Assembly (NCBI GenBank): GCA_902617975.1
Contig: CACMYV010000002.1
Span: forward strand, 62,001-126,000
Direction: 5' to 3'
From: an uncultured Pelagibacteraceae bacterium
GTDB taxonomy: Bacteria > Pseudomonadota > Alphaproteobacteria > Pelagibacterales > Pelagibacteraceae
DNA length: 64,000 bases
The notes beneath the pieces were generated by a model. That model was not told the DNA's origin and made no database searches. It saw only the letters and a list, made by a program, of their open reading frames with translations. A program made the position numbers and the translations under genes. This document shows positions 23,505 to 55,345 of this stretch, piece after piece. Within the stretch, counting starts at the first letter, position 1. Each line of letters starts with the position of its first letter.

Positions 23505-23770
23505 CTTATTTCTTCTGTGACTTTTGCTGTTTGGAAAATTTCATGTGTAGCGGTGTCTCTTTGCACCTTAATCCATTGTCTACATCCAGCTATATGTTGC
23601 CATAACTCTATATGTTTCCCTCTTGGACTTTTTCTCATATAAACAAAATTATCCCAATCCTTGCTTGATACTTCTTCATTTATATTAGGTCTTTTTACAG
23701 TTGCATCACCTCCATATGAAAATTCTTTTTGTGCTCTTAAACCGCAATAAGGACATTTGATATATAACAT
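23501..23770 (-). CDS. soxD: Sarcosine oxidase delta subunit (or MgdB-type)
   Basis: An 89-residue zinc-binding subunit. C-P-Y-C-G near residues 6-10 is the zinc motif, and H-I-A-G-C-R-Q-W (near 64-71) and R-D-T-A-T-H-E-I are the conserved SoxD segments. It sits three bases after the beta subunit and overlaps the alpha subunit by four, as in canonical soxBDAG operons. It helps assemble the complex and has no catalytic role of its own. Confidence 0.93.
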   Translation of the reverse strand: MLYIKCPYCGLRAQKEFSYGGDATVKRPNINEEVSSKDWDNFVYMRKSPRGKHIELWQHIAGCRQWIKVQRDTATHEIFQTAKVTEEIR

Positions 23771-23773
23771 TTT

Positions 23774-28843: not shown

Positions 28844-30178
28844 ATGACTAAAGTCGCTATTATCGGTGCTGGACCTTGTGGATTGTCAATTCTGAGGGCT
28901 TTTGAACATGCCGAGAAAAAAGGAGACAAAATACCTGAAATAGTTTGCTTTGAAAAACAAAGTGATTGGGGAGGTCTTTGGAATTATAGCTGGAGAACGG
29001 GATCTGACCAATATGGAGATCCAGTTCATAATAGTATGTATAGATATCTTTGGTCAAATGGACCTAAAGAGTGTCTTGAATTTGCAGATTATTCTTTTGA
29101 TGAACATTTTGGAAAGCCAATTCCTTCTTTCCCACCTAGAGAAGTACTTTATGATTATATCACTAGTAGAGTAAGTAAAGGAAATTTAAGAAATAAAATT
29201 AAATTTAATACAAGAGTAGTTAATACAGTTTTTAAATCAGACAAATTTGAAGTTAGCTATCAAGATAAAGAAAATGATAAAATTTTAACTGATCATTTTG
29301 ATTACGTTGTAGTGTCCACTGGTCATTTTTCAGTTCCTTTTATACCTGAATATAAAGGTATGAGTTCATTTCCTGGAAGAATAATGCACTCACATGATTT
29401 TAGAGATGCAGAAGAATTTAGAGGAAAAAATATTATAGTTTTAGGAAGCAGTTATTCCGCTGAGGATATTGCGCTTCAATGCAATAAATATGGAGCAAAA
29501 AGTGTAACAATTGGCTACAGGCATAATCCTATGGGTTTTAAATGGCCTGAAGGAATGAAGGAAGTATTCTATTTAGATAGATTAGAGGGAAAAAAAGCAA
29601 TTTTTAAAGATGGCACGGAACAGGATGCAGATGTAATAATACTATGTACTGGTTACCTACATCATTTTCCTTTCTTGGAAGAAAATTTAAAACTTAAAAC
29701 AAGAAACAGACTTTATCCTCCAAAATTATACAAAGGTGTTGTTTGGCAAGATAATCACAAACTTTTGTATCTAGGAATGCAAGATCAGTTTCATACATTC
29801 AATATGTTTGATTGCCAAGCTTGGTACGCAAGAGATGTTATAATGGGGAAAATAAATATACCAAATGGAGGGGATATTGAAAAAGATATTAATAAATGGG
29901 TTGCTTTAGAAGAAAAACTAGAAAATCCTGATCAGATGATTGATTTTCAGACTGAATACACAAAAGAATTACATGAGATGTCAGATTATCCAAAAATAGA
30001 TTTTGAACTAATCAGAAAACATTTTAAAGAATGGGAACATCATAAGGTTGAAGATATATCAACGTATAGAAATAAATCTTTTTCATCTCCAGTAACAGGG
30101 TCAGTAGCTCCTGTTCATCATACAGCTTGGGCAAAAGCAATGGACGACTCCTCTGAAACATTTCTAAATAAAAACTAA
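28844..30178 (+). CDS. tmm: Trimethylamine monooxygenase (flavin-containing monooxygenase)
   Basis: A 444-residue flavin-containing monooxygenase closely matching the marine Tmm family. G-A-G-P-C-G at residues 8-13 binds FAD, the FMO signature appears as F-P-G-R-I-M-H-S-H-D-F, and G-S-S-Y-S-A-E-D is the NADPH motif. The G-L-W-N-Y-S-W-R-T-G and D-P-V-H-N-S-M-Y-R-Y-L-W segments are characteristic. It oxidises trimethylamine to TMAO with NADPH and oxygen, and can oxidise dimethylsulfide to DMSO. Together with tmoXVW and tdm it opens the methylated-amine route. It is divergent from the iron alcohol dehydrogenase and converges with the GH63-like gene. Confidence 0.95.
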   Translation: MTKVAIIGAGPCGLSILRAFEHAEKKGDKIPEIVCFEKQSDWGGLWNYSWRTGSDQYGDPVHNSMYRYLWSNGPKECLEFADYSFDEHFGKPIPSFPPREVLYDYITSRVSKGNLRNKIKFNTRVVNTVFKSDKFEVSYQDKENDKILTDHFDYVVVSTGHFSVPFIPEYKGMSSFPGRIMHSHDFRDAEEFRGKNIIVLGSSYSAEDIALQCNKYGAKSVTIGYRHNPMGFKWPEGMKEVFYLDRLEGKKAIFKDGTEQDADVIILCTGYLHHFPFLEENLKLKTRNRLYPPKLYKGVVWQDNHKLLYLGMQDQFHTFNMFDCQAWYARDVIMGKINIPNGGDIEKDINKWVALEEKLENPDQMIDFQTEYTKELHEMSDYPKIDFELIRKHFKEWEHHKVEDISTYRNKSFSSPVTGSVAPVHHTAWAKAMDDSSETFLNKN

Positions 30179-33889: not shown

Positions 33890-33890
33890 A

Positions 33891-33927
33891 AAAAAAAGCG
33901 GATAATTAATATTACCCGCTTTTTTTA
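33891..33927 (-). terminator. Intra-operon hairpin terminator between binding protein and permeases
   Basis: On the minus strand A7, GCGGG, a short AT stem, CCGC (with one mismatch) and T7 form a typical Rho-independent hairpin 13 bases after the binding-protein stop and just before the permease start. Partial read-through would give more binding protein than permease, a common arrangement in ABC operons. It is also nearly symmetric and could act on either strand. Confidence 0.8.
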
Positions 33928-33940
33928 ATTTTTTAAATTA

Positions 33941-35269: not shown

Positions 35270-35380
35270 ATATTCCCCTCTTTTTCGTGTTTTCTAAAGT
35301 TATTTAAAAATTAACACATAATGAACATTTAAAAGAAGAATAACAAGTATCTAAATTACACAATACTACCTGAGATTGAT

Positions 35381-36466: not shown

Positions 36467-36467
36467 T

Positions 36468-40686: not shown

Positions 40687-41238
40687 TTAAAAATTTTTAA
40701 TAAAATAAACCCTTGTATCAATTCCAGTACTTAAAAAACTTAAGGCTTCACCGCTTACTTTAATTGTTTCGTCTACTCCTACGTTATTTCCACTAACTGT
40801 AAAACCTGCAAAACATTTCTTTTTTTCAGCATCCCATTCAACAAATGTTTCATCAATCTTATTGCCGTTAATAGTATAAATTTCGTGTGCTCTAAAATTT
40901 AAGAAATTTGCACCCATTATTGCTCTTTGGGGGATAAGCTTTGTGGCATTACACACTCCCTCATACAATTCATCTGATAATTTATAATGATCAGTACCAT
41001 CAAAAGTTACTAATATACCCGAGGGAAGTTTTGAAATTAATGCACTTAGTTTTCTCTCTTTTGCAATTCTCTCTTCTTCCAATTTCATTTTCCTAACTAA
41101 TTCATCACCCTCGCTAAATATATTATTTAAAATAGCAAAAGAAGTAATTATGACTATTGTTAAAATTATTAGTCCTATAAATTGTTTTAGGTTCTCGGGT
41201 AATCCTTTTAATTTATTAAATGAAGTTTCGTTCGACAT
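40687..41238 (-). CDS. Hypothetical single-pass membrane protein with coiled coil
   Basis: A 183-residue protein. One transmembrane helix (about residues 18-40) is followed by a charged helical stretch M-K-L-E-E-E-R-I-A-K-E-R-K that could form a short coiled coil, then a globular C-terminal domain of about 115 residues. No family is recognised. It starts at the stop of the MORN-repeat gene (TAATG) and shares its transcript, so the pair probably works together at the envelope. The cysteine pattern (C-N-A-T-K, K-K-K-C-F-A) may be structural. Confidence 0.75.
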   Translation of the reverse strand: MSNETSFNKLKGLPENLKQFIGLIILTIVIITSFAILNNIFSEGDELVRKMKLEEERIAKERKLSALISKLPSGILVTFDGTDHYKLSDELYEGVCNATKLIPQRAIMGANFLNFRAHEIYTINGNKIDETFVEWDAEKKKCFAGFTVSGNNVGVDETIKVSGEALSFLSTGIDTRVYFIKNF

Positions 41239-41615
41239 TAATCTTGTAATTTACCGTTTTTCCAAATTCCTACTTTTTGGTCGCCATTAGCCCAAGTAAA
41301 TGTTCCTTTGCCATTCATAAAACCATTAGCCCACTCTCCTTCATAAGTAGAACCATCTGGGAAAGTTAAAGTTCCAACTCCACTCCAAACACTGTTTTTA
41401 AACTCACCTTTATAGATATATCCGTTTGGCCATGTTTCTACACCTTGGCCATTTTTTTTTGTTCCTACCCACTCACCTTCATAAGTAGTTTTATCTGTAT
41501 AAACCCATTTTCCATATCCATTTTCACAGTTACCTTCTTTACATCCGGTGCTTCGAGCAAAAACTGATGAGCTTATTAATAAACTTAAAAAAAAGTAAAA
41601 AAGATATTTTCTCAT
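41238..41615 (-). CDS. MORN-repeat protein, exported
   Basis: A 125-residue protein with signal peptide (about residues 1-20, ending S-S-V-F-A-R) and about four MORN repeats: Y-E-G-E-W-V-G-T-K-K-N-G-Q-G, Y-K-G-E-F-K-N-S-V-W-S-G-V-G, Y-E-G-E-W-A-N-G-F-M-N-G-K-G and a last degenerate one. Two cysteines near residues 24 and 29 may form a disulfide. Bacterial MORN proteins are usually envelope-associated with unknown roles. It is coupled to the 183-residue membrane protein. A terminator separates it from tmoX upstream. Confidence 0.85.
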   Translation of the reverse strand: MRKYLFYFFLSLLISSSVFARSTGCKEGNCENGYGKWVYTDKTTYEGEWVGTKKNGQGVETWPNGYIYKGEFKNSVWSGVGTLTFPDGSTYEGEWANGFMNGKGTFTWANGDQKVGIWKNGKLQD

Positions 41616-42783: not shown

Positions 42784-45123
42784 ATGTTAGAAGAAAATTT
42801 AAGAATAAATGAACCTGGTTTAAATGTTTTGCCACCTGGGGTTGAAAGATATGTAGTTAATGGCGGTGGATTAACAGGAGTTCAGGTTTTTCCGGATGAT
42901 GAAATTGAAATTATTAATAATGAAGGAAATCAAATTTGTGAAATAGTTGTTTTTAATTCTGATGGAAATTCAGATCCATCAATTTTAAATTTAAAATCAT
43001 CTAAATCAGAAAATGATATAATTAAAATTTTAAATAGAGACGAAGAAAGTTCGAAAATTGCTTTGCGCCAATTAGAAAAAAGAAATCTTAAAATTGCAAA
43101 ATCTAAATCCTCAATCCTTTTTGATAAAGACACTCCACCAGGAGAAAAAATTAAAATAAGTTCAAAAGATAAATGTTATTGCATTTTTTCTGCACCTGGT
43201 AATGATATGTTGGTTCATGAACAAAATCCTCCTACAGAATTAACTTTATTTATTAAAAGAAATAATATTGTTGACTATAAAGAACATAGAATAATTCCAG
43301 ATCCAATTTTTGATCCTCTAGACGAAAAAAATATTGCAAAACAGTCAGCGATTTCTTTTGAAGTTAAAGAAGGAGATTATATTCAAATAATTTGTCCAAC
43401 TGGTAGACAATGTTCAGATTTTGTTGCTTTTGATACAGCTAAATTGGGTAAAGGTATTGAAAAAGGTTTAGATTGGCAAACAACCAGGACCTTTATGGGA
43501 AATACATTTCCAGGACCAGGATTGTATTCAAAATTTTATGATACAGACCATGAGCCTTTAGTAGAAGTAATAAGAGATACTGTTGGTAGACATGACACTT
43601 TTAATCTTGCTTGTACATCGAAGTATTACGAAGATGCTGGTTATTTTGGGCATCCAAATTGCTCAGATAACTTAAGTGGTGCTATGGAAAATTTTGGGGT
43701 TAATAGACAAAAGGGATGGCACGCTATAAATTTATTTTTTAATACTTCAGCAGGAGGCTTAAATACCGTACTTTCTGATGAGTCATTTGCTAGACCTGGA
43801 GATTATGTAATATTAAGAGCTTTAAAAGATTTAACCTGCGGAACATCAGCCTGTCCAAGTGATATAGATCCATGTAATTCATGGAACCCTACAGATATTT
43901 TTGTTAGAACTTACGAAAAAAAAAGAGAATTTACAAAATCTTTTGCATTTAGAATGAAACCAGACTCAGAATTAAAACTAACAAAAAATACAGGATTTCA
44001 TGAAAGAACTTCAAAGTTAACAAGAAACTTTGTTGATGCTAGAGGATATTGGCTGCCTAATGATTACACTAAACACGGAGTAATAAATGAATATACAGCG
44101 TGTAGAGAAAAAGCAGTTTTAATTGATTTATCTTCTTTAAGAAAATTTGAAATATTAGGTCCAGATGCAGAAGAATTAATGGACTATACTTTAACAAGAA
44201 ATGTTAAAAAATTGTCAGTTGGACAAATTGTTTATTCTTCGATGTGTTATGAAAATGGTTCTATGTTTGATGATGGAACATTGTTAAAAATGAGTGATCA
44301 TGGATTTAGATGGGTATGTGGTGATGAATACGCAGGTGAATGGTTAAAAGAACAAGCAAAAAAGAAAAAATTTAATGTTTTAGTTAAAAACTCTACTGAC
44401 CAAATAAATAATATTTCTCTACAAGGACCTAACAGTAGAAAAATTTTAGAAAAGTTTATTTTTACTCCACCAACACAACCTTCTATTTCAGAATTACAAT
44501 GGTTTAGGTTTACAATCTGTAGAGTAAAAGAACTTAGTGGAATTCCATTAATGGTTTCTAGAACTGGATACACAGGCGAGTTAGGATACGAAATATGGTG
44601 TCACCCTTCAGATGCACCAGCAGTTTGGGATGTGCTTATGGAAGCTGGCAAAGATGAAGGAATAATACCTGCTGGTTTTGGAGCATTAGATTTATTAAGA
44701 ATTGAAGCTGGACTAATATTATTTGGTAATGAATTTGACGGCCAAGTTGACCCTTTTGAAGCTGGTGTTGGATTTACGGTTCCTTTAAAAACAAAAACAG
44801 CAGATTTCATTGGTAAAGAAGCATTAATAAAGAGAAAAGAAAATCCACAAAAGAAATTAGTTGGATTAGAACTTGTAGGCAAAGAAAAAGCTAATCACGG
44901 TGATTGCGTTCACATTGGAAGATCCCAAGTTGGCGTAGTTACAAGCGGATGTCTATCTCCTACTTTGAATAAAAATATTGCTTTGTGCAGAATTGATGTA
45001 GGTCATTCAGAAATAGGTATGAACGTTGAAGTCGGTAAAATTGATGGACATCAAAAAAGAATACCTGCTAAAATTGTTGGTTTCCCGCATTACGATCCTC
45101 AAAAAACACGTGTAAAATCTTAA
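42784..45123 (+). CDS. tdm: Trimethylamine N-oxide demethylase
   Basis: A 779-residue two-part enzyme matching Tdm. The N-terminal half is a DUF1989-like region (core K-E-G-D-Y-I-Q-I-I-C-P-T-G-R-Q-C-S-D near residues 196-213, later H-P-N-C-S-D-N and C-G-T-S-A-C-P-S-D-I-D-P-C) with clustered cysteines for zinc. The C-terminal half, from about residue 400, is a GcvT-fold tetrahydrofolate domain. Tdm splits TMAO to dimethylamine and formaldehyde, captured by THF. It overlaps the following regulator by one base (TAATG) and is divergent from tmoX. Confidence 0.93.
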   Translation: MLEENLRINEPGLNVLPPGVERYVVNGGGLTGVQVFPDDEIEIINNEGNQICEIVVFNSDGNSDPSILNLKSSKSENDIIKILNRDEESSKIALRQLEKRNLKIAKSKSSILFDKDTPPGEKIKISSKDKCYCIFSAPGNDMLVHEQNPPTELTLFIKRNNIVDYKEHRIIPDPIFDPLDEKNIAKQSAISFEVKEGDYIQIICPTGRQCSDFVAFDTAKLGKGIEKGLDWQTTRTFMGNTFPGPGLYSKFYDTDHEPLVEVIRDTVGRHDTFNLACTSKYYEDAGYFGHPNCSDNLSGAMENFGVNRQKGWHAINLFFNTSAGGLNTVLSDESFARPGDYVILRALKDLTCGTSACPSDIDPCNSWNPTDIFVRTYEKKREFTKSFAFRMKPDSELKLTKNTGFHERTSKLTRNFVDARGYWLPNDYTKHGVINEYTACREKAVLIDLSSLRKFEILGPDAEELMDYTLTRNVKKLSVGQIVYSSMCYENGSMFDDGTLLKMSDHGFRWVCGDEYAGEWLKEQAKKKKFNVLVKNSTDQINNISLQGPNSRKILEKFIFTPPTQPSISELQWFRFTICRVKELSGIPLMVSRTGYTGELGYEIWCHPSDAPAVWDVLMEAGKDEGIIPAGFGALDLLRIEAGLILFGNEFDGQVDPFEAGVGFTVPLKTKTADFIGKEALIKRKENPQKKLVGLELVGKEKANHGDCVHIGRSQVGVVTSGCLSPTLNKNIALCRIDVGHSEIGMNVEVGKIDGHQKRIPAKIVGFPHYDPQKTRVKS

Positions 45124-45473
45124 TGTCAAAATCATCAAAGGATTTACTGGAATTTTGGGAAGATCAAATGAAACTGTCCCATACATCAAGTAATTACTTT
45201 TTCAGAAAGTCTCCTTCACATTATCACATGATGTTGATTGTGATGAATTCCTATAAATTAAATGAAAACTTATCTGTCGAAGAACTTAAGACTAGACTTT
45301 TCAAAACCTCTAGACCCAAATCTGCACTCATGATCAAAGAAGCTTGTGATAAAGAATTTTTTTACCTCGAGAAAACCGGAAATGACCATAGAAAAAAGTA
45401 CGTTTTACCCACACAGAATTTTGTTAATGAATTTAACGAATATTTGAAAACTCTCAAAAATTTGAGTTTTTAA
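45123..45473 (+). CDS. Small winged-helix (MarR-like) transcriptional regulator
   Basis: A 116-residue protein consistent with a minimal MarR/wHTH fold. The helices L-S-V-E-E-L-K-T-R-L and K-S-A-L-M-I-K-E-A-C form the helix-turn-helix (about residues 45-75), followed by a wing, F-F-Y-L-E-K-T-G-N-D-H-R-K-K-Y-V, with the conserved D-x-R-x-K pattern. The C-terminal helix could dimerise. Its start overlaps the tdm stop. It is the only regulator near the methylamine genes and plausibly senses TMAO or amine status; this is inference. Confidence 0.8.
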   Translation: MSKSSKDLLEFWEDQMKLSHTSSNYFFRKSPSHYHMMLIVMNSYKLNENLSVEELKTRLFKTSRPKSALMIKEACDKEFFYLEKTGNDHRKKYVLPTQNFVNEFNEYLKTLKNLSF

Positions 45474-45562: not shown

Positions 45563-46891
45563 ATGTCGTTACCGACAAAAGCAAAAGTTGTAATAATTGG
45601 TGGAGGAATTCACGGGTTAAGTACTGCTTGGAAACTTTCCGAAAAATATAAAAATCCAAACGATGTAGTTGTCTTAGAAAAAAAAGACACTGCTGCAGGT
45701 GCAAGTGGAATTGCATGTGGAGTTGTTAGAAATAATTATTTTCAACCAGCAATGAGAGAATTAATGGCTCATTCAGTTAGTGTTTGGGAAAGTGATCCAG
45801 AGGCATTTAAATATAATGCTGTTGGCTATATGCAAATTTCTCCGGAAGTAATGCATAAAGATGTTGCAAGTATTTATGAACAACAAAAAGCTATTGGATA
45901 TGAATCAGAATTTATAGAAGGTGAAAAAGATTGCATGAAATATATGCAAGGAATTTTTAGTGATTGGCAAGCAAAAGGTATTACATCAGTCTTGCATGAA
46001 AAAAAAGGTGGATATGCATTTAATAAGGACTCAATTAAAGCACTGGAGAAAAAAGCAAATTCAAACGGTGTAAACGTTCATAAAGGAGTAAAGGTTACAG
46101 GTTTTAAAAGAGGGAGCAACAGCAATGCAATTACTGGCGTGGTTACAGATAAAGGTACAATTGATTGTGATCAGGTAGTTATTGGAGCAGGACCATGGGT
46201 AAGAGATTTTTGGAATATGTTGGAGTTACCAAAAACTACAAACATAAAAGATGCTAAAAATGGAAAAATGCATGAAGTTGAAATGTGGAAGTACTGGTTT
46301 TTACAAGAAGGTGTATTGGGTGTGGATGCAGATTATTTAAAAACTAATGAAGGTAAACCGCCTCCAGTAATTCATGTTGATACAGATGCGCCACTTTATT
46401 CTGACAAAGATGGTAAAATAATTACAGAAGACTTATGGGGTATTTATTATAAACCTGATATTGAAGGATTGGGAGTTCAAGGTGGAACATCACCTTACAT
46501 TGTTCAAAAACATTTTGATGAAGTTAATGTTGATCCGTATGGGATAGATTCTCCAGAATATCAAACTACTGATAAATTTTCTGATATGTGGACTTCAGCA
46601 CTTGCACATATTCAAAAACGTTTTGTTGGTAAATCTCATCTGTATAGAAAGGGGCCATCAGGAGGATTGGGTTGTTTAACTCCAGATTCATTCCCGATAT
46701 TCGATAGATTTTTTGAAAATGTTTACATGATTGCAGATGCAAATCATGGTTATAAAATGATAGGTGTTGGTCACCTTGTTGCACAAGAAATTTTAGGTCA
46801 TGAAAGTGAATTATTAAAACCGTTTAGGTTCGATAGATATGAAAAAGGAAAACTTCATCCGACATCGAACAGTCCGTTTCCTTGGAGCTAA
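45563..46891 (+). CDS. FAD-dependent oxidoreductase (DAO/SoxB-like), orphan
   Basis: A 442-residue DAO-family FAD protein. The V-V-I-I-G-G-G-I-H-G-L-S-T loop (about residues 9-21) and G-A-S-G-I-A-C-G-V-V-R-N-N-Y segment resemble SoxB and dimethylglycine-oxidase-type enzymes, and D-A-N-H-G-Y-K-M closes the FAD site. No delta, alpha or gamma subunit follows, unlike the complete operon at 19933-25030. Its position between tdm and the gmaS/mgs genes suggests it oxidises an N-methyl amine or amino acid of this pathway. Sarcosine, N-methylglutamate and dimethylamine are candidates. Confidence 0.88.
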   Translation: MSLPTKAKVVIIGGGIHGLSTAWKLSEKYKNPNDVVVLEKKDTAAGASGIACGVVRNNYFQPAMRELMAHSVSVWESDPEAFKYNAVGYMQISPEVMHKDVASIYEQQKAIGYESEFIEGEKDCMKYMQGIFSDWQAKGITSVLHEKKGGYAFNKDSIKALEKKANSNGVNVHKGVKVTGFKRGSNSNAITGVVTDKGTIDCDQVVIGAGPWVRDFWNMLELPKTTNIKDAKNGKMHEVEMWKYWFLQEGVLGVDADYLKTNEGKPPPVIHVDTDAPLYSDKDGKIITEDLWGIYYKPDIEGLGVQGGTSPYIVQKHFDEVNVDPYGIDSPEYQTTDKFSDMWTSALAHIQKRFVGKSHLYRKGPSGGLGCLTPDSFPIFDRFFENVYMIADANHGYKMIGVGHLVAQEILGHESELLKPFRFDRYEKGKLHPTSNSPFPWS

Positions 46892-46958: not shown

Positions 46959-48428
46959 ATGACGGATCTTGAAAAACACGTAAACCAACCAGGTAGAGCT
47001 AAACTCGTCAAAAAAGTTAGAGAAAAAATAAACGAATTAGGAATTACTTATATCTATTATCAATTTATTTCAGTAACTGGAAGAGTTGTTGGAAAAGGAA
47101 TACCGGCAGACCACTGGGAAAGAACTGCAGAAAAAGGTTTTCAATTGGTTTATGGAGCAACAGCAAACTTATTTTTAGATCGTCATAATAATTATATTGG
47201 TTATGGTCCAGAGGCTATGGAATTGGTAGGAATACCTGATCCAGAAACTTTTGTTCAATTGCCTTGGGATAAGAGAGTTGGAAGAGTTTTTGTTACATGT
47301 TTTAGAAATAGAGAAGAAAGAAAAAATCCAGGTGGTCATTTAACAAGTGACTGCAGAGGTAATCTTAGAATTTTCATGAATGAGTTCAAAAAGAAACATG
47401 GATTAGAATTAAGAGTTGGAACAGAGCCTGAAATGATGTGGTTAACAAAAAATCCTGATGGAACTCCAACTGGACAAGGTTTCTCAAAACCTTTCTGTTA
47501 TCATATTGATCAATTTGAATCATTAAGACCTGTGTTTATGAAGGTTATTGAATACGCAAAAGCGATGGGTCTTGATATGATCCAAGGTGACCATGAAGAT
47601 GCTCCTGGTCAATTAGAGCTTAACTGGACATTTGATAATGTTTTAAGAAATGCTGATAGATTATCTACGTATAGACAAATTTGTGCTCAAGTAGCAAGAG
47701 AACATAATCTTATAGCTTGCTTTATGACTAAACCATTTATGGGAGTTTCAGCAAGTGGATGTCATACCAACATGTCTTTGTGGAAAGGTGGAAAAGTATC
47801 AGTAAACAAATTGGGTAACAAAAAACTTCCAGGTGTAGAAGAAGTCTTTAGCTATGTATCCGGTGGAACTAATACTTTCATGCCAGATACTAAGGATATG
47901 CAATTGCCTGGAAAGATTGGATTACAGTCAATTGCAGGGATAATGAAACACTTGCCAGCTTTAACAGCAATTGGTTCTTCGACAGTGAACTCATATAGAA
48001 GATTATGGGATCAAGGTTTTTGGGCACCAGTTTATGCTGACTGGGGTTATCAAAATAGAACATGTGGTCTAAGAGTATCTGCTCCAGGTAGATTCGAGTA
48101 CAGATCAGTTGACTCTATGCATAACCCATATTTATTAGGTGCAGCATTACTTAAAGCTTGTGATGAGGGAATATCTAAAAAAATGAAACCAGCTAAACCA
48201 GAGTCTAGAAATATATACGAAGCTCAAAAAGCTGGTAAAGATGTTAAAAAACTTCCACTAAGTTTAGGTGAAGCTTTAGATAGATTGGCGGAAGATGAGG
48301 TAATAAAATCATCAATGCCAGATGAAATGTATAAAGTATTTAATTGGTACAAACGAGATGAGTGGGAAAAATTCTTGGGTGCAACAACACAATGGGATCT
48401 TGATACTTATCTGGATTGTTTACCATAA
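46959..48428 (+). CDS. Glutamine synthetase-like protein (GlnT/type III family)
   Basis: A 489-residue glutamine-synthetase-fold ligase. V-G-T-E-P-E-M-M-W (near residue 151) and G-D-H-E-D-A-P-G-Q-L-E-L-N (near 207-219) carry metal and ATP ligands, and A-P-G-R-F-E-Y-R (near 369) matches the C-terminal glutamate-binding block. An AAAGGGGG Shine-Dalgarno sequence (46947-46954) leads it. It stands directly before mgsA, as glnT stands with the rhizobial glx genes. It is clearly different from the gmaS candidate at 54020-55345, so two ligases of this fold serve the cluster. Its acceptor amine is unknown. Confidence 0.9.
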   Translation: MTDLEKHVNQPGRAKLVKKVREKINELGITYIYYQFISVTGRVVGKGIPADHWERTAEKGFQLVYGATANLFLDRHNNYIGYGPEAMELVGIPDPETFVQLPWDKRVGRVFVTCFRNREERKNPGGHLTSDCRGNLRIFMNEFKKKHGLELRVGTEPEMMWLTKNPDGTPTGQGFSKPFCYHIDQFESLRPVFMKVIEYAKAMGLDMIQGDHEDAPGQLELNWTFDNVLRNADRLSTYRQICAQVAREHNLIACFMTKPFMGVSASGCHTNMSLWKGGKVSVNKLGNKKLPGVEEVFSYVSGGTNTFMPDTKDMQLPGKIGLQSIAGIMKHLPALTAIGSSTVNSYRRLWDQGFWAPVYADWGYQNRTCGLRVSAPGRFEYRSVDSMHNPYLLGAALLKACDEGISKKMKPAKPESRNIYEAQKAGKDVKKLPLSLGEALDRLAEDEVIKSSMPDEMYKVFNWYKRDEWEKFLGATTQWDLDTYLDCLP

Positions 48429-48445: not shown

Positions 48446-49387
48446 ATGTGCGGGATTGCAGGATTAATTCATAGAGGAAATACTTCAAACGTTGGTTTTG
48501 AACTTCAGGGTATGCTTCAAGCATTAAAGCATAGAGGAGAAGATTCAACTGGATACGCTCTATACGGAAAAACTGACGGTCAAAATTTCATCATGCGATT
48601 TAAGGTTGGTGAAAATGTTGCAGAGGGAAGTTCTTCAGTAAAAGAAGATGTATCAGTTTATGACGAAAGAAAAAAAATTGTTGATTCTTATCTTTCTGAG
48701 CTAGGCGCTAAAGTGATAAAAGAGGATAGAATTCTTCCTTATTCATTGCGATATGAAATTCAATATGACAAAGATTTAATGGAATTTTCTCAAAAAATAG
48801 AAAGTGTTGAAGGTGTAGAAATATTATCTATGGGAAAATCTCTAGAAGTAATTAAAGATTTAGGAAATGCTGAAGTAGTTTGTAACAGATATAATTTAGA
48901 TAAAGTTGTCGGGACACATGCAATTGGTCATGCTAGAATGGCAACAGAGTCAGGAGTGGATATTAAATCTGCTCACCCATTTTGGGGTTATCCTTTTAGC
49001 GATGTGTCAGTCGTTCATAATGGACAATTAACAAACTATTGGAATAATAGAAGAGTATTGGAAAACAAGGGCATGAGATTTATGTCAGAATGTGACTCGG
49101 AATTAATCGCTGTATATCTTGCAGAAAAAATGAGAAATGGAGCTACATTAGAAGAGGGAATGAAAGAATCTCTCGTCGGTTTAGATGGGGTATTTACTTA
49201 TTTTGTTGCTACAAAAGATAGTTTAGGAATGGCGAAAGATACAATGGCTGCAAAACCACTAGTATTGTATGAGTCTGATGATTTAGTTGCAATGGGGTCA
49301 GAGGAAATTGCAATAAGATCAATATTACCACAAGAAATCGAAACTTATGATCCTTTTGATGGAGAAGTTAAAGTATGGCAAATTTAA
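48446..49387 (+). CDS. mgsA: N-methylglutamate synthase subunit A (class II amidotransferase)
   Basis: A 313-residue class II (Ntn) glutamine amidotransferase domain. Cys2 in M-C-G-I-A-G is the nucleophile, with H-R-G-E-D-S-T-G-Y near residue 31-39 and H-A-I-G-H-A-R-M-A-T-E-S-G near 155. It corresponds to the GATase part of glutamate synthase. In N-methylglutamate synthase it takes gamma-glutamylmethylamide and passes methylamine on. Its last codons overlap mgsB by 13 bases, proving the three-subunit operon. The rhizobial homologue is GlxB. Confidence 0.88.
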   Translation: MCGIAGLIHRGNTSNVGFELQGMLQALKHRGEDSTGYALYGKTDGQNFIMRFKVGENVAEGSSSVKEDVSVYDERKKIVDSYLSELGAKVIKEDRILPYSLRYEIQYDKDLMEFSQKIESVEGVEILSMGKSLEVIKDLGNAEVVCNRYNLDKVVGTHAIGHARMATESGVDIKSAHPFWGYPFSDVSVVHNGQLTNYWNNRRVLENKGMRFMSECDSELIAVYLAEKMRNGATLEEGMKESLVGLDGVFTYFVATKDSLGMAKDTMAAKPLVLYESDDLVAMGSEEIAIRSILPQEIETYDPFDGEVKVWQI

Positions 49388-50229
49388 AAACATCAGAAAA
49401 AAAAAGTAAAGCTCAATCAATGGGACTTCATACAGAAGTCTTAACTGGAAAAACACAACAAAAATTTTTTAATCCAGATGAGGCTGAGAATTTTTATTAC
49501 TTTGGGACATATGATGTAGATTTTAACAAAAGAACTGAAATTGACGTTAAGAACATGGATTGTCGTGAAGCAAATAAAAAAATTGATGAATTAATGAAAG
49601 ATGGATACGGAACAATTGTAATAAAAAACCCTCAAGGGAAACATAGTTTGGGAGTTGGAATCCTCAATAAATTAAATTTAATATTTGAAGGTAGCTTAGG
49701 ATACTTTGGATGTGGATCAATGGATGGTCCTATTGTTAGAATTAATGGAAGAGTGGGATGGTCATGTGCAGAAAATATGATGGCAGGAAAAGTAGTAATT
49801 GAAAAAAATGCAGGTTCATGTTTTGGTGCGGCAATTAGAGGTGGAGATCTGATATGCAAAGGAAGCGTAGGTGCCAGAACAGGAATTGATCAAAAAGGTG
49901 GAACAATAATTATTGGCGGAGATGCTGGTGCTTTTACAGGTTTTATGATGCAGAGAGGGCGAATTATTATTCTTGGAGACGTTGGAATAAATTTAGGAGA
50001 CTCTATGTATGATGGGACAATTTTTGTAGGTGGAAAAATTGGATCATTTGGTAGTGATGCTGTCGAAGCTGAGTTAACTGATTCAGATCAAGACTGGCTT
50101 AAAAGAAAATTAAAGGTTGCGGAGATCGGAGAAAACTTCGATGTTTCTAAGATGACCAAAGTTGTGGCAGGAAAAAAACTTTGGAATTACGATGCTCTTG
50201 AACCTACAGAAAAAAAAGGAGCAATTTAA
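49375..50229 (+). CDS. mgsB: N-methylglutamate synthase subunit B (GXGXG domain)
   Basis: A 284-residue protein with the right-handed beta-helix GXGXG repeat domain of glutamate synthase (G-S-L-G-Y-F-G-C-G-S-M-D-G, G-G-D-A-G-A-F-T-G-F-M-M-Q-R-G and similar turns, about residues 105-225). It has no catalytic residues and serves as a scaffold between GATase and FMN subunits. It ends one base before mgsC. The N-terminus is Lys-rich. Confidence 0.87.
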   Translation: MANLKTSEKKSKAQSMGLHTEVLTGKTQQKFFNPDEAENFYYFGTYDVDFNKRTEIDVKNMDCREANKKIDELMKDGYGTIVIKNPQGKHSLGVGILNKLNLIFEGSLGYFGCGSMDGPIVRINGRVGWSCAENMMAGKVVIEKNAGSCFGAAIRGGDLICKGSVGARTGIDQKGGTIIIGGDAGAFTGFMMQRGRIIILGDVGINLGDSMYDGTIFVGGKIGSFGSDAVEAELTDSDQDWLKRKLKVAEIGENFDVSKMTKVVAGKKLWNYDALEPTEKKGAI

Positions 50230-51621
50230 ATGGCAAAGAAAAAAAATGGTAATGGAAAGTCAAACGGACATTCTAATGGTAATGGAATAGCTTCAAGAAA
50301 CAAAAGTTTGTTAGGACACAACGCTATTTTTACTCCAGAAGTTATGGACGACATACATATCAAAGCGGAATTAGGAAGATACAGAATGAGAGGAATGGCT
50401 TTGATGAAAAAGATACCTACTTTCGATGATCTAGTTTTCTTGCCAGGTACATTAACAAGATTTGTTATTGAAGGTTACAGAGAAAAATGTGAGACCAAAA
50501 CTATTATTGGTCCAAGATGTGAAAATCCAATTGAACTTGATATTCCAGTTTACATTACGGGAATGAGTTTTGGAGCTTTATCTTATGAAGCAAAAACTGC
50601 ATTAGCTAGAGGTGCTACAATGGCTGGTAGCGCAACATGTTCTGGTGAAGGTGGAATGATACCAGATGAGAGAAGATATTCAGAAAAATGGTTTTATCAG
50701 TGCATACAATCAAGATACGGTTTTAACCCACACCATGCACAACTAGCTGATGGAATTGAGGTATTTATTGGACAAGGACAAAAAGTTGGAATGGGTGGTC
50801 ATTTGATGGGTCAAAAAGTTACTGACCAAGTTGCAGAAATGAGATCGCTACCTGCGGGTATTGATCAAAGATCTCCAGCAAGACATCCTGATTGGCTGGG
50901 TCCAGATGATTTAGCTTTAAAAGTTCAAGAGCTTAGAGAATTAACAAAAAACAAGGTGCCAATTCAATTAAAACTTGGAGCAGCTAAAGTGTATGATGAT
51001 GTAAGGATGGCAGCAAAATGCGATCCAGATTCAATTTATCTTGATGGAATGGAAGGTTCAACAGGTGCTGGACCACACATTGCAGCTGCAAACACAGGTA
51101 TCCCAGGAATAGCAGGAATTAGAGAAGCAAGAAGAGCTTTGGATGATGTAGGTAAAACTGGAAAGGTAACTTTAATTTATGCAGGTGGTGTTAGAGATGG
51201 AGCAGATATGGCTAAAGCTTTAGCACTTGGTGCAGACGCAATTGCAATCGGAACAGGCGCAATGGTGGCATTAAATTGCAATAAAGAAATACCAGAATCT
51301 AATTTTGAAAAAGAAATGGGTGTTCCCGCAGGTCATTGCTATCACTGTCATACCGGTAGATGTCCAGTAGGAGTTGCTACTCAAGATCCAAAATTAAGAA
51401 AAAGATTAAATCCTGATGATGCAGCATTAAGAGTTTATAATTACTTGCATGCGATGACATTGGAGGCTCAATTGTTGGCTAGAGCATGTGGAAAAACAAA
51501 TATTCACTCGCTAGAACCAGAAGATATGGCTGCATTAACAATGGAGGCATCTGCTTTAGCTAAAGTGCCTCTTGCAGGAACAAATCATACAGTAGGAGTT
51601 AAAGATTTCCATAAAATCTAA
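50230..51621 (+). CDS. mgsC: N-methylglutamate synthase subunit C (FMN/Fe-S glutamate synthase-like)
   Basis: A 463-residue glutamate-synthase-type FMN subunit. P-V-Y-I-T-G-M-S-F-G-A-L-S (near residue 108-120), L-K-L-G-A-A-K and G-A-D-A-I-A-I-G-T-G-A shape the TIM barrel, and C-Y-H-C-H-T-G-R-C-P-V-G-V-A-T (near 379) is the iron-sulfur motif. It condenses methylamine with 2-oxoglutarate to N-methylglutamate. An unusual Asn/Gly/Lys-rich leader of about 25 residues precedes the domain. The rhizobial homologue is GlxD. Confidence 0.88.
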   Translation: MAKKKNGNGKSNGHSNGNGIASRNKSLLGHNAIFTPEVMDDIHIKAELGRYRMRGMALMKKIPTFDDLVFLPGTLTRFVIEGYREKCETKTIIGPRCENPIELDIPVYITGMSFGALSYEAKTALARGATMAGSATCSGEGGMIPDERRYSEKWFYQCIQSRYGFNPHHAQLADGIEVFIGQGQKVGMGGHLMGQKVTDQVAEMRSLPAGIDQRSPARHPDWLGPDDLALKVQELRELTKNKVPIQLKLGAAKVYDDVRMAAKCDPDSIYLDGMEGSTGAGPHIAAANTGIPGIAGIREARRALDDVGKTGKVTLIYAGGVRDGADMAKALALGADAIAIGTGAMVALNCNKEIPESNFEKEMGVPAGHCYHCHTGRCPVGVATQDPKLRKRLNPDDAALRVYNYLHAMTLEAQLLARACGKTNIHSLEPEDMAALTMEASALAKVPLAGTNHTVGVKDFHKI

Positions 51622-51629
51622 TAGCAAAT

Positions 51630-52040
51630 ATGCCAAAGAAAAAAGGTAAGAAAAAAGTCAAATCAAAAGAGATCAAAGGTCAATTAGGAAAGAAAAAAGA
51701 GACTGCTAGAGAAAAAATGATTGGCCAAACAATTGGCTATCGATATGACGTTAATCTTTTGCCTGACTATAGTCGACTCACTCCATTTTTAAAAAAATAT
51801 ATAGAAGCTATGGGTTGGGATGATCTTAATTGGTTAGAAGATGTTCATATGGGATATGAAGAAAATAGACCTGCTGTATTCGATAGAAATGCTAACGGTT
51901 GGGTAACGATACCAAGTAAAATAAAATTACCTAATAATCAGCAGGATAGAGATATGATAGCTAGAGAATTATTGGTAAAGTTTCAAATGTCCCCGAATCA
52001 TCCTCTGGTTGACCTTAAAAAAGCATATTTAAAATTCTAA
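51630..52040 (+). CDS. Hypothetical basic protein in the mgs operon
   Basis: A 136-residue protein that I do not recognise. The first 30 residues are almost all Lys, Gly, Ser and Glu (for example M-P-K-K-K-G-K-K-K). The rest is a small globular domain with Y-R-Y-D-V-N-L-L-P-D-Y, M-G-W-D-D-L-N-W and L-L-V-K-F-Q-M-S. It lies eight bases after mgsC, with the amt gene following after 116 bases. It may assist assembly or regulate the synthase. The Lys-rich tail resembles the mgsC leader, suggesting an ionic interaction; this is inference. Confidence 0.78.
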   Translation: MPKKKGKKKVKSKEIKGQLGKKKETAREKMIGQTIGYRYDVNLLPDYSRLTPFLKKYIEAMGWDDLNWLEDVHMGYEENRPAVFDRNANGWVTIPSKIKLPNNQQDRDMIARELLVKFQMSPNHPLVDLKKAYLKF

Positions 52041-52156: not shown

Positions 52157-53557
52157 ATGACTGATCAATTAGGTGCTCTCACAACCTTATTTACAGAATT
52201 TTACTATTGGGTAACTGTGGTTCTTATGTTTTTGATCCACGTGGGATTCTGTATGTATGAAGTTGGGGCATCTCGTTACAAACATCACCAACACACTCTT
52301 ATGAAAAATACAATGCTGATACCACTGGTAACAGTCACATGGTTTTTCTTTGGTTGGTGGATATACTGGGCATTTCCAACAGGACCCGGATTAGCTCCTT
52401 CGATTATGACCGAAAGTACTGGTCTAGTTCTTGGAGGTGGATTTGGTGGAAATGATCTTGCTAATCCTACAAATGCATTGATGGCCGTAAATCTTAATGA
52501 TCATATAATGGGTGTCTTCTGGGCAGCCTTTTTATTATTTTCATGGACTGCAGCTTCAATTGTATCTGGAGCGGTTATTGAAAGGATAACTACTTTTGCA
52601 TTTGGAATACTTGCAATTGCAATTGGATCTGTTTTCTGGACAATAGATGCTTCATGGGGATGGCATTTTGATGGATGGATGTTAAAAATATTAGGATATC
52701 ACGATGCTTATGCTTCGGGAGTAATTCACGCAATTGCCGGAGGTTTTGCCTTAGGTGTTCTAATTGTTTTAGGACCAAGAATTGGAAAATTTTCATCTAG
52801 CGGAGAACCGAGAAACATTGGACCAAGAAATCCTTGGTTAGTGACTGTTGGATTATTCTTAATCTATACAGGTTTTTGGGGCTTTTACGCTGCATGTAAT
52901 GTTCCGATTTATGATCTTGGACCTGAATATGGTATGGAAGGTGTAACTTTCTTTACTGCAACGAACATCTACCTAACTCCCACCACACTTAGTGGAATAA
53001 CGATGAACTTTTTAATGTCGTTATCTGGAGGGTTGTTAGCAGGGTATGTGGTCTCGAAGGGAGATCCTTTCTGGACTTATTCATCAGGACTTGCGGGAAT
53101 AATATGTGCATCTGCAGGTAATGATTTATATCATCCAATACAATCAATGATAATCGGTATGATCGGAGTAGTTATAGCTTACAAAATGCATTACTGGGTC
53201 GAGAAAAAATATAAAATCGACGATGCAGTTGGAGCAGTAGCTGTTCATGGTTATGCTGGATTTGTTGGTCTTGTGATATGTGGTTTCGTTTTAAATGGTT
53301 ATCCTTCATCTGGATACAGTGTTGGAGCTATGTGGGATGGAACTAATTATGCAGCAATTAATCCTCTTGGAATGTTTATCGGTGCAATAATAATGTTTTT
53401 TGTACTAGGTATGCTTCCTGGATATATAATTGCAAAAGTTCTTCACGGAATGGGTAAATTAAGAATACCAAGAGAAGTAGAACTTGCAGGACTTGACTAT
53501 ACAATTATGGAAGAGGCTAAAGAAGACGAAAAAGCTGTAGTCTCGGCCAGTAGATAA
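52157..53557 (+). CDS. amt: Ammonium transporter (Amt family)
   Basis: A 466-residue inner-membrane channel with about 11 helices. S-G-V-I-H-A-I-A-G-G-F-A-L (near residue 193) and A-V-A-V-H-G-Y-A-G-F-V-G (near 360) carry the two pore histidines, and D-A-S-W-G-W-H-F-D-G and F-F-G-W-W-I-Y-W are family features. AGGAGAG (52144-52150) is a strong Shine-Dalgarno sequence. It imports ammonium, or possibly methylammonium, which would fit its place between mgsABC and gmaS. No GlnB/GlnK gene is beside it. Confidence 0.93.
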   Translation: MTDQLGALTTLFTEFYYWVTVVLMFLIHVGFCMYEVGASRYKHHQHTLMKNTMLIPLVTVTWFFFGWWIYWAFPTGPGLAPSIMTESTGLVLGGGFGGNDLANPTNALMAVNLNDHIMGVFWAAFLLFSWTAASIVSGAVIERITTFAFGILAIAIGSVFWTIDASWGWHFDGWMLKILGYHDAYASGVIHAIAGGFALGVLIVLGPRIGKFSSSGEPRNIGPRNPWLVTVGLFLIYTGFWGFYAACNVPIYDLGPEYGMEGVTFFTATNIYLTPTTLSGITMNFLMSLSGGLLAGYVVSKGDPFWTYSSGLAGIICASAGNDLYHPIQSMIIGMIGVVIAYKMHYWVEKKYKIDDAVGAVAVHGYAGFVGLVICGFVLNGYPSSGYSVGAMWDGTNYAAINPLGMFIGAIIMFFVLGMLPGYIIAKVLHGMGKLRIPREVELAGLDYTIMEEAKEDEKAVVSASR

Positions 53558-54019: not shown

Positions 54020-55345
54020 ATGGCAAAAAATTTATTTAAAATTTCAAAACAAAAAAAAATTAAATATTTTTTAATAAGTTTTGTAGATTTATTTGGTGTA
54101 TTAAGATCAAAATTGGTTCCTGCTCATGCGATAAAAGATATGCAAGTAAATGGTGCTGGATTTGCTGGATTTGCAGCTTGGTTAGATATGACGCCAGCTG
54201 ACTCTGATATGTTTGCAATACCTGATCCTGACAGTTTAATTCAACTACCATGGAATAAAGAAGTTGGTTGGTTGGCTTCGGATTTATGGATGAATGGTAA
54301 ACCAGTCGATGCTTCACCAAGAGTGATGTTAAAAAAACAAATAAAAAAATTATCTGAATTGGGATACAGCATGAAGTCAGGTGTGGAGTGTGAGTATTTT
54401 TTGATTTCTCCTGATGGGAACACAATTGCTGATAATAGAGATACTCAATCTAAACCTTGTTATGACCAGTCTTCATTAATGAGAAGATATGAGCTTATAA
54501 AAGAAATTTGTGATTGTATGATTGAAATGGGATGGGGTCCTTATCAAAATGACCACGAAGATGCTAATGGGCAATTTGAAATGAATTGGGATTATTCAGA
54601 TTGTCTAAAAACTGCTGATAGACACACTTTTTTTAAATTTATGGTTAAAACTATTGCAGAAAAGCATGATTTGAGAGCAACATTTATGCCAAAACCTTTT
54701 GAAAATTTAACTGGTAACGGATGTCATGCACATATTTCTTTATGGAAAGGAAAGAAAAATATCTTTCTTGATAAACATGATAAGCTTGGGCTAAGCAAGA
54801 CAGCTTATAACTTTTTGGGAGGCATCATGAAACATGCTTCATCCTTATCTACTTTTTTTAATCCAACAATAAATAGTTACAGACGAATAAATGCTGCACC
54901 AACAAAATCTGGTGCCACATGGTCTCCAAGCAGTATATCATATACAGGAAATAACCGTACACATATGATAAGGGTTCCTGATCCAGGGAGATTTGAATTA
55001 AGACTTATGGATGGATCCGCAAATCCTTATTTACTTCAAGCTAGTGTATTAGCTGCAGGAATGGAGGGATTAAATAAAAGAATTAATCCTGGCAAACCTC
55101 TTTTTTGTAATATGTATGAGGATTATAAAAAATATCCAAACCTTTCTAAATTACCAAATGAACTAAAAGATTCTCTTGATAAAATTGAAAATAATAAAGA
55201 AATGAATAAAGCATTTGGAAAAGAAGTAATTAAAAGTTATGTCAAGTTAAGGACTTCGGAATTAAAAGATTTTAATGATAACGAAAAATTTGATAAGTCC
55301 AAACCAATTACAAAATGGGAAAGACAGAATACTCTAGACTGTTAA
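54020..55345 (+). CDS. gmaS: Gamma-glutamylmethylamide synthetase
   Basis: A 441-residue type III glutamine-synthetase-like enzyme closely matching GMAS of marine Alphaproteobacteria: I-K-Y-F-L-I-S-F-V-D-L-F-G-V-L-R near the start, G-F-A-G-F-A-A-W-L-D-M-T-P near residues 50-62, E-C-E-Y-F-L-I-S, N-D-H-E-D-A-N-G-Q-F-E and D-P-G-R-F-E-L-R. It ligates methylamine to glutamate with ATP, giving gamma-glutamylmethylamide for MgsABC. It ends one base before the PLP enzyme. The methylamine-pathway assignment depends on this gene more than on the first GS-like gene. Confidence 0.9.
   Translation: MAKNLFKISKQKKIKYFLISFVDLFGVLRSKLVPAHAIKDMQVNGAGFAGFAAWLDMTPADSDMFAIPDPDSLIQLPWNKEVGWLASDLWMNGKPVDASPRVMLKKQIKKLSELGYSMKSGVECEYFLISPDGNTIADNRDTQSKPCYDQSSLMRRYELIKEICDCMIEMGWGPYQNDHEDANGQFEMNWDYSDCLKTADRHTFFKFMVKTIAEKHDLRATFMPKPFENLTGNGCHAHISLWKGKKNIFLDKHDKLGLSKTAYNFLGGIMKHASSLSTFFNPTINSYRRINAAPTKSGATWSPSSISYTGNNRTHMIRVPDPGRFELRLMDGSANPYLLQASVLAAGMEGLNKRINPGKPLFCNMYEDYKKYPNLSKLPNELKDSLDKIENNKEMNKAFGKEVIKSYVKLRTSELKDFNDNEKFDKSKPITKWERQNTLDC

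What the first reader, a model, noticed from the sequence alone, without database searches (positions are those of the whole stretch)
45563..46891. Orphan FAD oxidase fills the missing dimethylamine step?
The window encodes TMA to TMAO (tmm), uptake (tmoXVW), TMAO to DMA (tdm), methylamine to gamma-glutamylmethylamide (gmaS), then mgsABC and an mgd/sox-type operon. The DMA to methylamine step is normally done by the DmmABCD monooxygenase, which I cannot find. The lone DAO-family flavoprotein between tdm and the GS-like gene is positioned to do it, which would be a new type of DMA oxidase.
Basis: inference. Interest (0 to 1): 0.75.

Follow-up and report, generated by a model that had tools for sequence, protein, structure and literature searches.

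The report
Flavoprotein in a putative dimethylamine module
The gene is real and belongs to a conserved gene set that ocean bacteria lacking the known dimethylamine enzyme carry in its place, but the flavoprotein itself looks built for a modified amino acid rather than for free dimethylamine.

Summary
The ORF at 45563-46891 is a real 442-aa SoxB/DMGDH-type flavoprotein (DAO) in a Pelagibacteraceae (SAR11) genome. No DmmA-type (PF11927) gene was found in this 77%-complete genome or in two 99%-complete genomes of its genus. The gap is a published open question. "Lone DMA oxidase" is not supported. DAO heads a conserved cluster (call it M'): DAO, a divergent GmaS-like ligase (GSx, 46959-48428), MgsABC paralogues (48446-51621), and an unknown 136-aa protein. 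In 385 alphaproteobacterial genomes M' tracks tdm (27 of 37 M'+ genomes, 7 of 348 others). Among 34 tdm+ genomes M' never coexists with a strong PF11927 match (0 of 27 against 5 of 7). DAO tracks M', not tdm: DAO without M' is tdm+ in 1 of 9, M' without DAO in 3 of 4. GSx keeps eight GmaS active-site residues checked (109 of 109). DAO keeps an Arg and a Lys aligned with sarcosine oxidase's (113 of 113), recalled as its carboxylate clamp. Best reading: M' conjugates DMA to glutamate, and DAO demethylates the resulting N-methylated glutamate. This is inference, with no biochemistry. Rivals: direct DMA oxidation by DAO, or M' as a second methylamine route. A phylogeny-corrected test was underpowered.

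The parts
45563..46891 (+). DAO: FAD-dependent SoxB/DMGDH-type oxidoreductase, 442 aa (the finding); likely SAR11_1304 equivalent
   Evidence: PF01266 123 bits; AF2 pLDDT 86, best structural neighbours PDH1-beta, TSOX-beta, MSOX, DMGDH; R56/K398 invariant 113 of 113
46959..48428 (+). GSx: divergent glutamine-synthetase-fold ligase with the GmaS amine-site residues; likely SAR11_1305 glnT
   Evidence: PF00120 in two pieces; about 29% identical to window GmaS, amine-site residues 109 of 109
48446..49387 (+). MgsA' (class II glutamine amidotransferase), N-terminal MCG in 96 of 96
   Evidence: PF13522/PF13537
49375..50229 (+). MgsB' (GXGXG domain)
   Evidence: PF01493
50230..51621 (+). MgsC' (glutamate-synthase FMN domain), clade separate from the GmaS-linked MgsC
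   Evidence: PF01645; 76-93% to module copies, 49-54% to GmaS-linked copies; tree
51630..52040 (+). u136: conserved protein of unknown fold that follows mgsC' in the module; likely SAR11_1309
   Evidence: no Pfam/NCBIfam family, no convincing PDB relative (best E 0.016), 65% mean column identity over 27 orthologues, no fold match
45123..45473 (+). u116: small protein between tdm and DAO, seen only in SAR11 among the stretches mapped
   Evidence: 58 distinct copies, the 10 printed all from SAR11; only SAR11 stretches match; no Pfam
52157..53557 (+). Amt ammonium/methylammonium-type transporter; likely SAR11_1310
   Evidence: PF00909
42784..45123 (+). tdm, TMAO demethylase
   Evidence: NF053776 1106 bits, cut-off 1100
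54020..55345 (+). gmaS, gamma-glutamylmethylamide synthetase
   Evidence: 566 bits to RhGmaS 7cql
28844..30178 (+). tmm, FMO-like TMA monooxygenase candidate
   Evidence: PF00743 153 bits
41698..42642 (-). tmoX, TMAO/betaine-type binding protein
   Evidence: PF04069
37434..40622 (-). ABC permease (37434-39587) and ATPase (39591-40622) of the TMAO importer
   Evidence: PF00528, PF00005
20508..25030 (-). SoxA-like (20508-23504) and SoxB-like (23774-25030) subunits of the N-methylglutamate/sarcosine dehydrogenase type
   Evidence: SoxB over cut-off

Best explanation
DAO is the oxidoreductase of a glutamate-conjugation module (GSx, MgsA'B'C', u136, with Amt beside it in some genomes) that stands in for Dmm in TMAO users without Dmm. 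Proposed steps: Tdm makes DMA; GSx joins DMA to glutamate as gamma-glutamyl-dimethylamide; MgsABC' splits the amide and reductively places the amine on 2-oxoglutarate as N,N-dimethylglutamate; DAO removes one methyl (formaldehyde, caught by tetrahydrofolate) to give N-methylglutamate; the Mgd/Sox enzyme finishes. Shown here: gene content, linkage, co-occurrence with tdm, exclusion of Dmm in one sample, conserved residues. Inferred: every substrate and the order of the steps.
For: M' and tdm: 27 of 37 M'+ genomes are tdm+ against 7 of 348 others. M' and strong PF11927 among 34 tdm+ genomes: 0 of 27 against 5 of 7, Fisher p 7.5e-5; by family 0 of 13 against 4 of 5, p 0.0016. Context of these five: a GcvT-like (DmmD-type) gene about 1.8-1.9 kb away in G252, G310 and G159 and 4.7 kb away in G283, none seen in G022, whose protein is only 38% like the nearest reference; without G022 it is 4 of 7, p 7.5e-4. 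GSx lies within 20 kb of tdm in 15 of 26, DAO in 10 of 25, DAO within 2.1 kb of GSx in 16 of 23. 12 of 27 tdm+ M'+ genomes also carry a GmaS-linked-type MgsC, each with GmaS, so M' is not needed there for methylamine. GSx keeps the equivalents of GmaS Gln175, Asp177, Glu179, Glu186, Asn188, Lys30, Arg312 and Trp300 (109 of 109; roles in PMC7948447 passages). GmaS itself accepts DMA at Km 16 mM, so the chemistry of step one exists. MgsA' keeps N-terminal MCG in 96 of 96. HTCC1062 has SAR11_1303 AMT, 1304 'monomeric sarcosine oxidase', 1305 glnT, 1309 hypothetical, 1310 amt, plus separate 1313-1315 glxBCD and 1316 glnT; the numbering fits both sets, and it grows on TMAO nitrogen without dmm. SAR11_1305 and SAR11_1302 (opuAC, beside the AMT gene) shift together under sulfur limitation (ratios 0.19 and 0.22).
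Against: No enzyme activity is known to me for any module member. 10 of 37 M'+ genomes lack tdm, so the natural amine could be another one. DAO is absent from 4 of 37 M'+ genomes (G071, G077, G312, G366), so it is replaceable or peripheral. On the Tdm tree only 4 independent contrasts remain: none in the same direction, 2.7 on average opposite, sign test p 0.25. In 21 further tdm loci from the phylum sample M' was in none of the stretches of up to 20 kb, Dmm-type PF11927 in 6 (whole genomes not searched). If the weak partial PF11927 hits of family f31 are counted, exclusion is 2 of 27 against 6 of 7. One tdm+ genome (G335) has neither M', DAO nor PF11927. 41 of 80 SAR11 loci, like the window, have gmaS and not mgsABC right after amt, so MgsABC' may serve methylamine there. 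N,N-dimethylglutamate has not been seen in this role; one search found 0 papers with both 'dimethylglutamate' and 'dimethylamine'.
Confidence: 0.4

Rival explanations
1. One reading: DAO itself oxidises free DMA to methylamine plus formaldehyde; GSx and MgsABC' then only process methylamine.
For: Next to tdm (one small gene between) in 77 of 80 SAR11 loci; 25 of 34 tdm+ genomes carry DAO and only 1 of those 25 has a strong PF11927 match, Fisher p 0.012; no PF11927 in the own genome.
Against: Arg56 and Lys398 in the sarcosine-oxidase carboxylate-clamp positions are invariant (role recalled). DAO without M' is tdm+ in 1 of 9 genomes; M' without DAO is tdm+ in 3 of 4. DAO persists in SAR11 genome G297 without tdm, GSx, MgsC or GmaS matches. 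It would not explain why a second ligase-synthase set is kept beside GmaS-MgsABC.
Confidence: 0.13
2. M' is a second or broader primary-amine route (methylamine, ethylamine and others) and DAO oxidises N-alkylglutamates; DMA is not the substrate, and SAR11 does the DMA step with something else or weakly.
For: GSx shares the eight checked active-site residues with the methylamine enzyme GmaS; in 5 of 27 tdm+ M'+ genomes no GmaS was found (four of the five are 81-86% complete); 41 of 80 SAR11 loci have gmaS and no second mgsABC right after amt; 10 of 37 M'+ genomes lack tdm.
Against: 12 of 27 tdm+ M'+ genomes already have GmaS plus GmaS-linked-type MgsC; it leaves the exclusion of strong PF11927 (0 of 27) and HTCC1062 growth on TMAO nitrogen unexplained.
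Confidence: 0.27
3. DAO is an independent oxidase of an N-methylated amino acid or imino acid (sarcosine, N-methylated osmolyte product, proline-like) that merely shares regulation with the cluster.
For: Nearest folds are L-proline dehydrogenase beta, sarcosine oxidase, DMGDH. In four DAO-only stretches examined it lies by sugar- or peptide-type ABC genes, gamma-glutamyltranspeptidase, MmgE/PrpD or a Rieske oxygenase.
Against: 33 of 42 DAO genomes have M' against 4 of 343 without DAO, and it is within 2.1 kb of GSx in 16 of 23 tdm+ genomes holding both.
Confidence: 0.17

Closest known systems
GmaS-MgsABC-Mgd (N-methylglutamate) methylamine pathway
   Same: Ligase of the GS fold with the same eight checked active-site residues, three-subunit glutamate-synthase-like enzyme, Sox-type dehydrogenase in the window
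   Different: GSx about 29% identical to GmaS; MgsC' 49-54% to the GmaS-linked MgsC and a separate clade; gene order GSx-A'B'C'-u136 with DAO first; extra conserved u136; coexists with GmaS plus GmaS-linked-type MgsC in 12 of 27 tdm+ M'+ genomes
DmmDABC dimethylamine monooxygenase
   Same: Proposed place in the pathway, between Tdm and methylamine
   Different: No strong PF11927 match in the 27 M'+ tdm+ genomes, weak partial hits in two; different protein families
Heterotetrameric sarcosine oxidase beta (SoxB), monomeric sarcosine oxidase, DMGDH, PDH1 L-proline dehydrogenase beta
   Same: Fold (Z about 33-42) and, for TSOX beta, the Arg/Lys positions
   Different: 16-23% identical in the structural alignments; 82 bits against the SoxB cut-off 529 and 41 against 480 for monomeric Sox; no SoxA/D/G partners adjacent, no folate domain
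PuuA-PuuB gamma-glutamylputrescine pair
   Same: A GS-fold ligase paired with a DAO-family oxidase (recalled)
   Different: GSx 215 bits against the PuuA cut-off 650; here with MgsABC' and no PuuC/PuuD-like gene among the neighbours scanned

Membership tests
Heterotetrameric sarcosine oxidase / N-methylglutamate dehydrogenase beta subunit (TIGR01373) | Score over curated cut-off 529 | tested here: not met
   82 bits; the own genome has two members over the cut-off elsewhere
Heterotetrameric sarcosine oxidase / N-methylglutamate dehydrogenase beta subunit (TIGR01373) | SoxA/D/G partners in operon | tested here: not met
   neighbours are tdm-u116 and GSx
Monomeric sarcosine oxidase (TIGR01377) | Score over cut-off 480 | tested here: not met
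   41 bits
SoxB/DMGDH-type amino-acid N-demethylases (functional class) | Arg and Lys of the carboxylate clamp | tested here: met
   R56, K398 aligned with 2gag_B (C-terminal part weakly; PDH1 beta has Met at the Lys), invariant 113 of 113; role of the residues recalled
Dimethylamine monooxygenase Dmm | PF11927 haem subunit in the genome | tested here: not met
   none in G000 (77% complete), G207, G297
GmaS (for GSx) | Asp177/Glu186/Arg312 and Lys30', Gln175, Glu179, Asn188 | tested here: met
   109 of 109 distinct GSx copies; Tyr147 alignment unsure
GmaS (for GSx) | Sequence clade / strong match to solved GmaS | tested here: not met
   7cql is only the 14th PDB match of GSx; about 29% identity to window GmaS
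N-methylglutamate synthase MgsABC (for 48446-51621) | Clade and linkage with gmaS | tested here: not met
   MgsC' separate from the GmaS-linked MgsC group; in the window gmaS is two genes downstream and not in the run; gmaS-mgsABC are co-transcribed in R. pomeroyi (passage)
N-methylglutamate synthase MgsABC (for 48446-51621) | Makes N-methylglutamate | not testable with these tools
   needs enzyme assay
DMA oxidase of any kind | Oxidises DMA | not testable with these tools
   needs enzyme assay

The most novel reading that the evidence does not exclude
SAR11 and at least twelve other alphaproteobacterial families (the M'+ tdm+ families of the sample) break down dimethylamine without a monooxygenase, by a dedicated glutamate-conjugation route: GSx makes gamma-glutamyl-dimethylamide, MgsABC' (with u136) makes N,N-dimethylglutamate, and DAO demethylates it to N-methylglutamate. 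This would be the missing DMA step.
Probability: 0.33. Interest if true: 0.87.

Novelty: new variant of a known kind. Interest (0 to 1): 0.7.

Why it matters
Lidbury and others (PMC5520151) read the absence of dmmDABC from SAR11 as a metabolic bottleneck that lets dimethylamine build up in surface water and seed marine aerosol. If a different gene set does the step in SAR11 and other lineages, that bottleneck is overestimated, and the marker used to count DMA degraders in metagenomes misses many of them. The candidate set is precise, conserved, and present by gene numbering in a cultured strain (HTCC1062) that grows on TMAO nitrogen, so the question becomes directly testable. It also warns that mgsABC and glnT/gmaS annotations in SAR11 can mix two paralogous sets.

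Tried and rejected
Rejected: DAO as a SoxB, MgdA or monomeric sarcosine oxidase orthologue (scores far below cut-offs). Rejected: 46959-48428 as the GmaS of the window. Rejected: 'lone' gene.

Led nowhere: DAO in the plasmid collection (no match at E 1e-40). The fold of u136 (no match at E 0.001, best 0.85). ORF-based synteny in GC-rich loci gave antisense ORFs; tblastn-based maps were used instead. Phylogeny-corrected exclusion was underpowered. In the 50 structural rows listed no DMA-specific enzyme appeared; that absence shows nothing. The Smith et al. 2013 proteome paper could not be looked up: the one id tried, from recall, was not held. Paper searches in which I saw no proposal of this module (listings, and passages of five papers); the library lacks most subscription papers and holds no bioRxiv set.

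Limits: absence in G000 rests on 77% completeness. DMA/TMA dehydrogenase families (PF00724 type) were not searched in the genome. M' was counted as GSx at E<=1e-100 minus G193, G266 and G373 (no MgsC' found), plus G346 (MgsC' at a contig start, no GSx); MgsC and GmaS were searched in 57 of the 385 genomes, PF11927 in 37. GSx of G071 holds one in-frame TGA. PF11927 copies were split at about 150 bits into strong (G022, G159, G252, G283, G310) and weak partial (G030, G259, G337). The PF11927 queries were written from both strands by mistake; one search repeats them on the right strand with the same presences. The tree uses the best tblastn piece for 19 of 34 Tdm rows. Tdm of G022, G335 and G346 branches deeply and may act differently.

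Full report
What is there. The window is G000:C2:62001-126000 of a 1.07-Mb, 77%-complete genome, 31% GC. The 80 best named relatives of the flavoprotein are in genomes labelled Pelagibacteraceae, several with identical protein. The ORF at 45563-46891 gives 442 aa with a PF01266 match over 8-408. The downstream run is GSx 46959-48428, then a class II amidotransferase, a GXGXG protein and a glutamate-synthase-domain protein (48446-51621), u136 (51630-52040), Amt (52157-53557) and a second GS-fold gene (54020-55345). The second one is the true GmaS: 566 bits to the solved Rhodovulum enzyme. GSx matches that enzyme only as its 14th PDB hit, in part.

The gap is real and known. No PF11927 gene was found in the own genome or in G207 and G297 of the same genus, both 99% complete. 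Lidbury et al. 2017 (PMC5520151; abstract, passages and Discussion read) state that dmmDABC is absent from all SAR11 representatives. They mention an unconfirmed 'general amine oxidase' expressed under nitrogen limitation. A 2022 paper (PMC8918994; passages and one section read) shows HTCC1062 growing, weakly, on TMAO as sole nitrogen source and suggests an isoenzyme of Dmm. Sun et al. 2011 (PMC3160333; passages read) call SAR11_1304 a monomeric sarcosine oxidase beside SAR11_1303 and 1302, with unknown substrate.

It is not a lone gene. Of 20 genome stretches around DAO orthologues, 13 show the order DAO, GSx, mgsA', mgsB', mgsC', u136 as far as the stretch reaches, with or without tdm nearby; 2 (G075, G286) have the same genes with DAO at the other end; 5 (G297, G357, G257, G274, G159) have DAO without GSx in the stretch. 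In 80 SAR11 loci tdm-u116-DAO holds in 77 and DAO-GSx in 79; most shortfalls are contig ends (L116, L162, L173), while in L148 2 kb upstream show no tdm match. Of 60 SAR11 loci that cover amt, 16 carry a second mgs-like set after it; the eight of these inspected show mgsA, mgsB and mgsC at 31-52% identity. In 41 of 80 gmaS comes next after amt, as in the window. MgsC falls into two separated groups, the module type and the GmaS-linked type.

Co-occurrence. In the 385-genome class sample, tdm is in 34, GSx in 39, DAO at 47% identity or more in 42, with 4 further remote matches at 37-41% dropped. I define M' as the module (37 genomes; rule under limits). M' and tdm: 27 of 37 against 7 of 348. 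DAO and M': 33 of 42 against 4 of 343. Among tdm+ genomes, a strong PF11927 match is in 0 of 27 M'+ and 5 of 7 M'-. For DAO the same comparison is 1 of 25 and 4 of 9. Four of the five strong matches have a GcvT-like, DmmD-type gene within 5 kb; the fifth (G022) does not and may be another member of the family; without it the count is 4 of 7, p 7.5e-4. GSx lies within 20 kb of tdm in 15 of 26 genomes, nine of them within 2.1 kb. Where DAO and M' part company, tdm goes with M': 3 of 4 against 1 of 9. So the unit that replaces Dmm is the module; DAO is its usual companion. In 21 extra tdm loci drawn from the phylum, M' was in none of the stretches read and Dmm-type PF11927 in 6. Correcting on the Tdm tree leaves four contrasts, none against the pattern, without statistical weight.

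What the residues say. The GmaS paper (PMC7948447; abstract and passages read) names Gln175, Asp177, Glu179, Glu186, Asn188, Tyr147 and Lys30' for the methylamine pocket, Arg312 for catalysis, Trp300 in place of the catalytic Glu of glutamine synthetase, and loss of the ammonium Asp50'. All named residues except Tyr147, whose alignment is unsure, are kept in 109 of 109 distinct GSx copies; the two window proteins are about 29% identical. GSx is therefore an alkylamine-glutamate ligase by its residues. GmaS already takes DMA, poorly (Km 16 mM). DAO has the sarcosine-oxidase fold, and its R56 and K398 align with TSOX-beta Arg and Lys (the C-terminal part weakly); both are invariant in 113 of 113 distinct copies. 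PDH1 beta, the best fold match, has Met at the Lys place. That these residues hold the substrate carboxylate in sarcosine oxidases is recalled, not from a call. An N-methylated amino acid is thus a likelier substrate than free DMA.

HTCC1062. Literature numbering places SAR11_1305 glnT (PMC5069961, one table passage) right after 1304, 1309 hypothetical and 1310 amt (PMC2704228, table passages), and a second set 1313-1315 glxBCD with 1316 glnT. The four numbers 1305-1308 fit GSx plus mgsABC'. I did not check these by sequence. If right, the cultured strain has both the methylamine set and the extra module. SAR11_1302 and 1305 are both among the 15 genes listed as changed fourfold or more in sulfur-limited stationary cells.

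Mechanism and rivals. I commit to the conjugation model at 0.4: DMA to gamma-glutamyl-dimethylamide, to N,N-dimethylglutamate, to N-methylglutamate by DAO, then the Sox-type dehydrogenase encoded at 20508-25030. Substrates are inference. The chief rival (0.27) is that M' is a second primary-amine route. Direct DMA oxidation by DAO stays possible (0.13).

Verdict. New variant of a known kind; interest 0.7 because it makes an open question directly testable.

Noticed in passing
51630-52040: u136: highly conserved 110-aa core (GYRYDVNLLPDY...MGWDDLNWLEDVHMGYE) that follows mgsC'; no family or fold match found.
   Followed up: partly
45123-45473: u116: small protein between tdm and DAO seen only in SAR11 among the stretches mapped; kept beside DAO in G297, which lacks tdm. 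Looks by eye like a winged-helix regulator; no Pfam match.
   Followed up: partly
L089:5929-10673: SAR11 genome G297 without tdm, GSx or gmaS matches keeps u116-DAO beside glycerol kinase and a sugar-type ABC transporter.
   Followed up: partly
L272:6955-8652, L268:8898-9758, L262:12013-12828: Between tdm and GSx, G185 (f66) and G364 (f76) carry a CN_hydrolase (nitrilase family), and G364 and G366 (f81) a GntR/FCD regulator: possible amidase and amine-responsive switch.
   Followed up: partly
L266:8377-11257, L278:9008-11685, L280:8912-11496: A sister group of GSx (53-62% identity to it) lies directly after another GS-like gene, with no MgsABC match in these stretches; function unknown.
   Followed up: no
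41238-41615: MORN-repeat protein beside the TMAO transporter.
   Followed up: no
30188-37427: ABC transporter with extracellular binding protein, MGH1-like glycoside hydrolase and glycerol-3-phosphate dehydrogenase-like gene between tmm and the TMAO transporter.
   Followed up: no
L106:6862-14851, L107:6773-14773: Family f31 (G030, G337) carries both mgsABC types in one cluster with the Sox operon and tmm, plus a weak, partial PF11927 protein elsewhere in the genome.
   Followed up: partly
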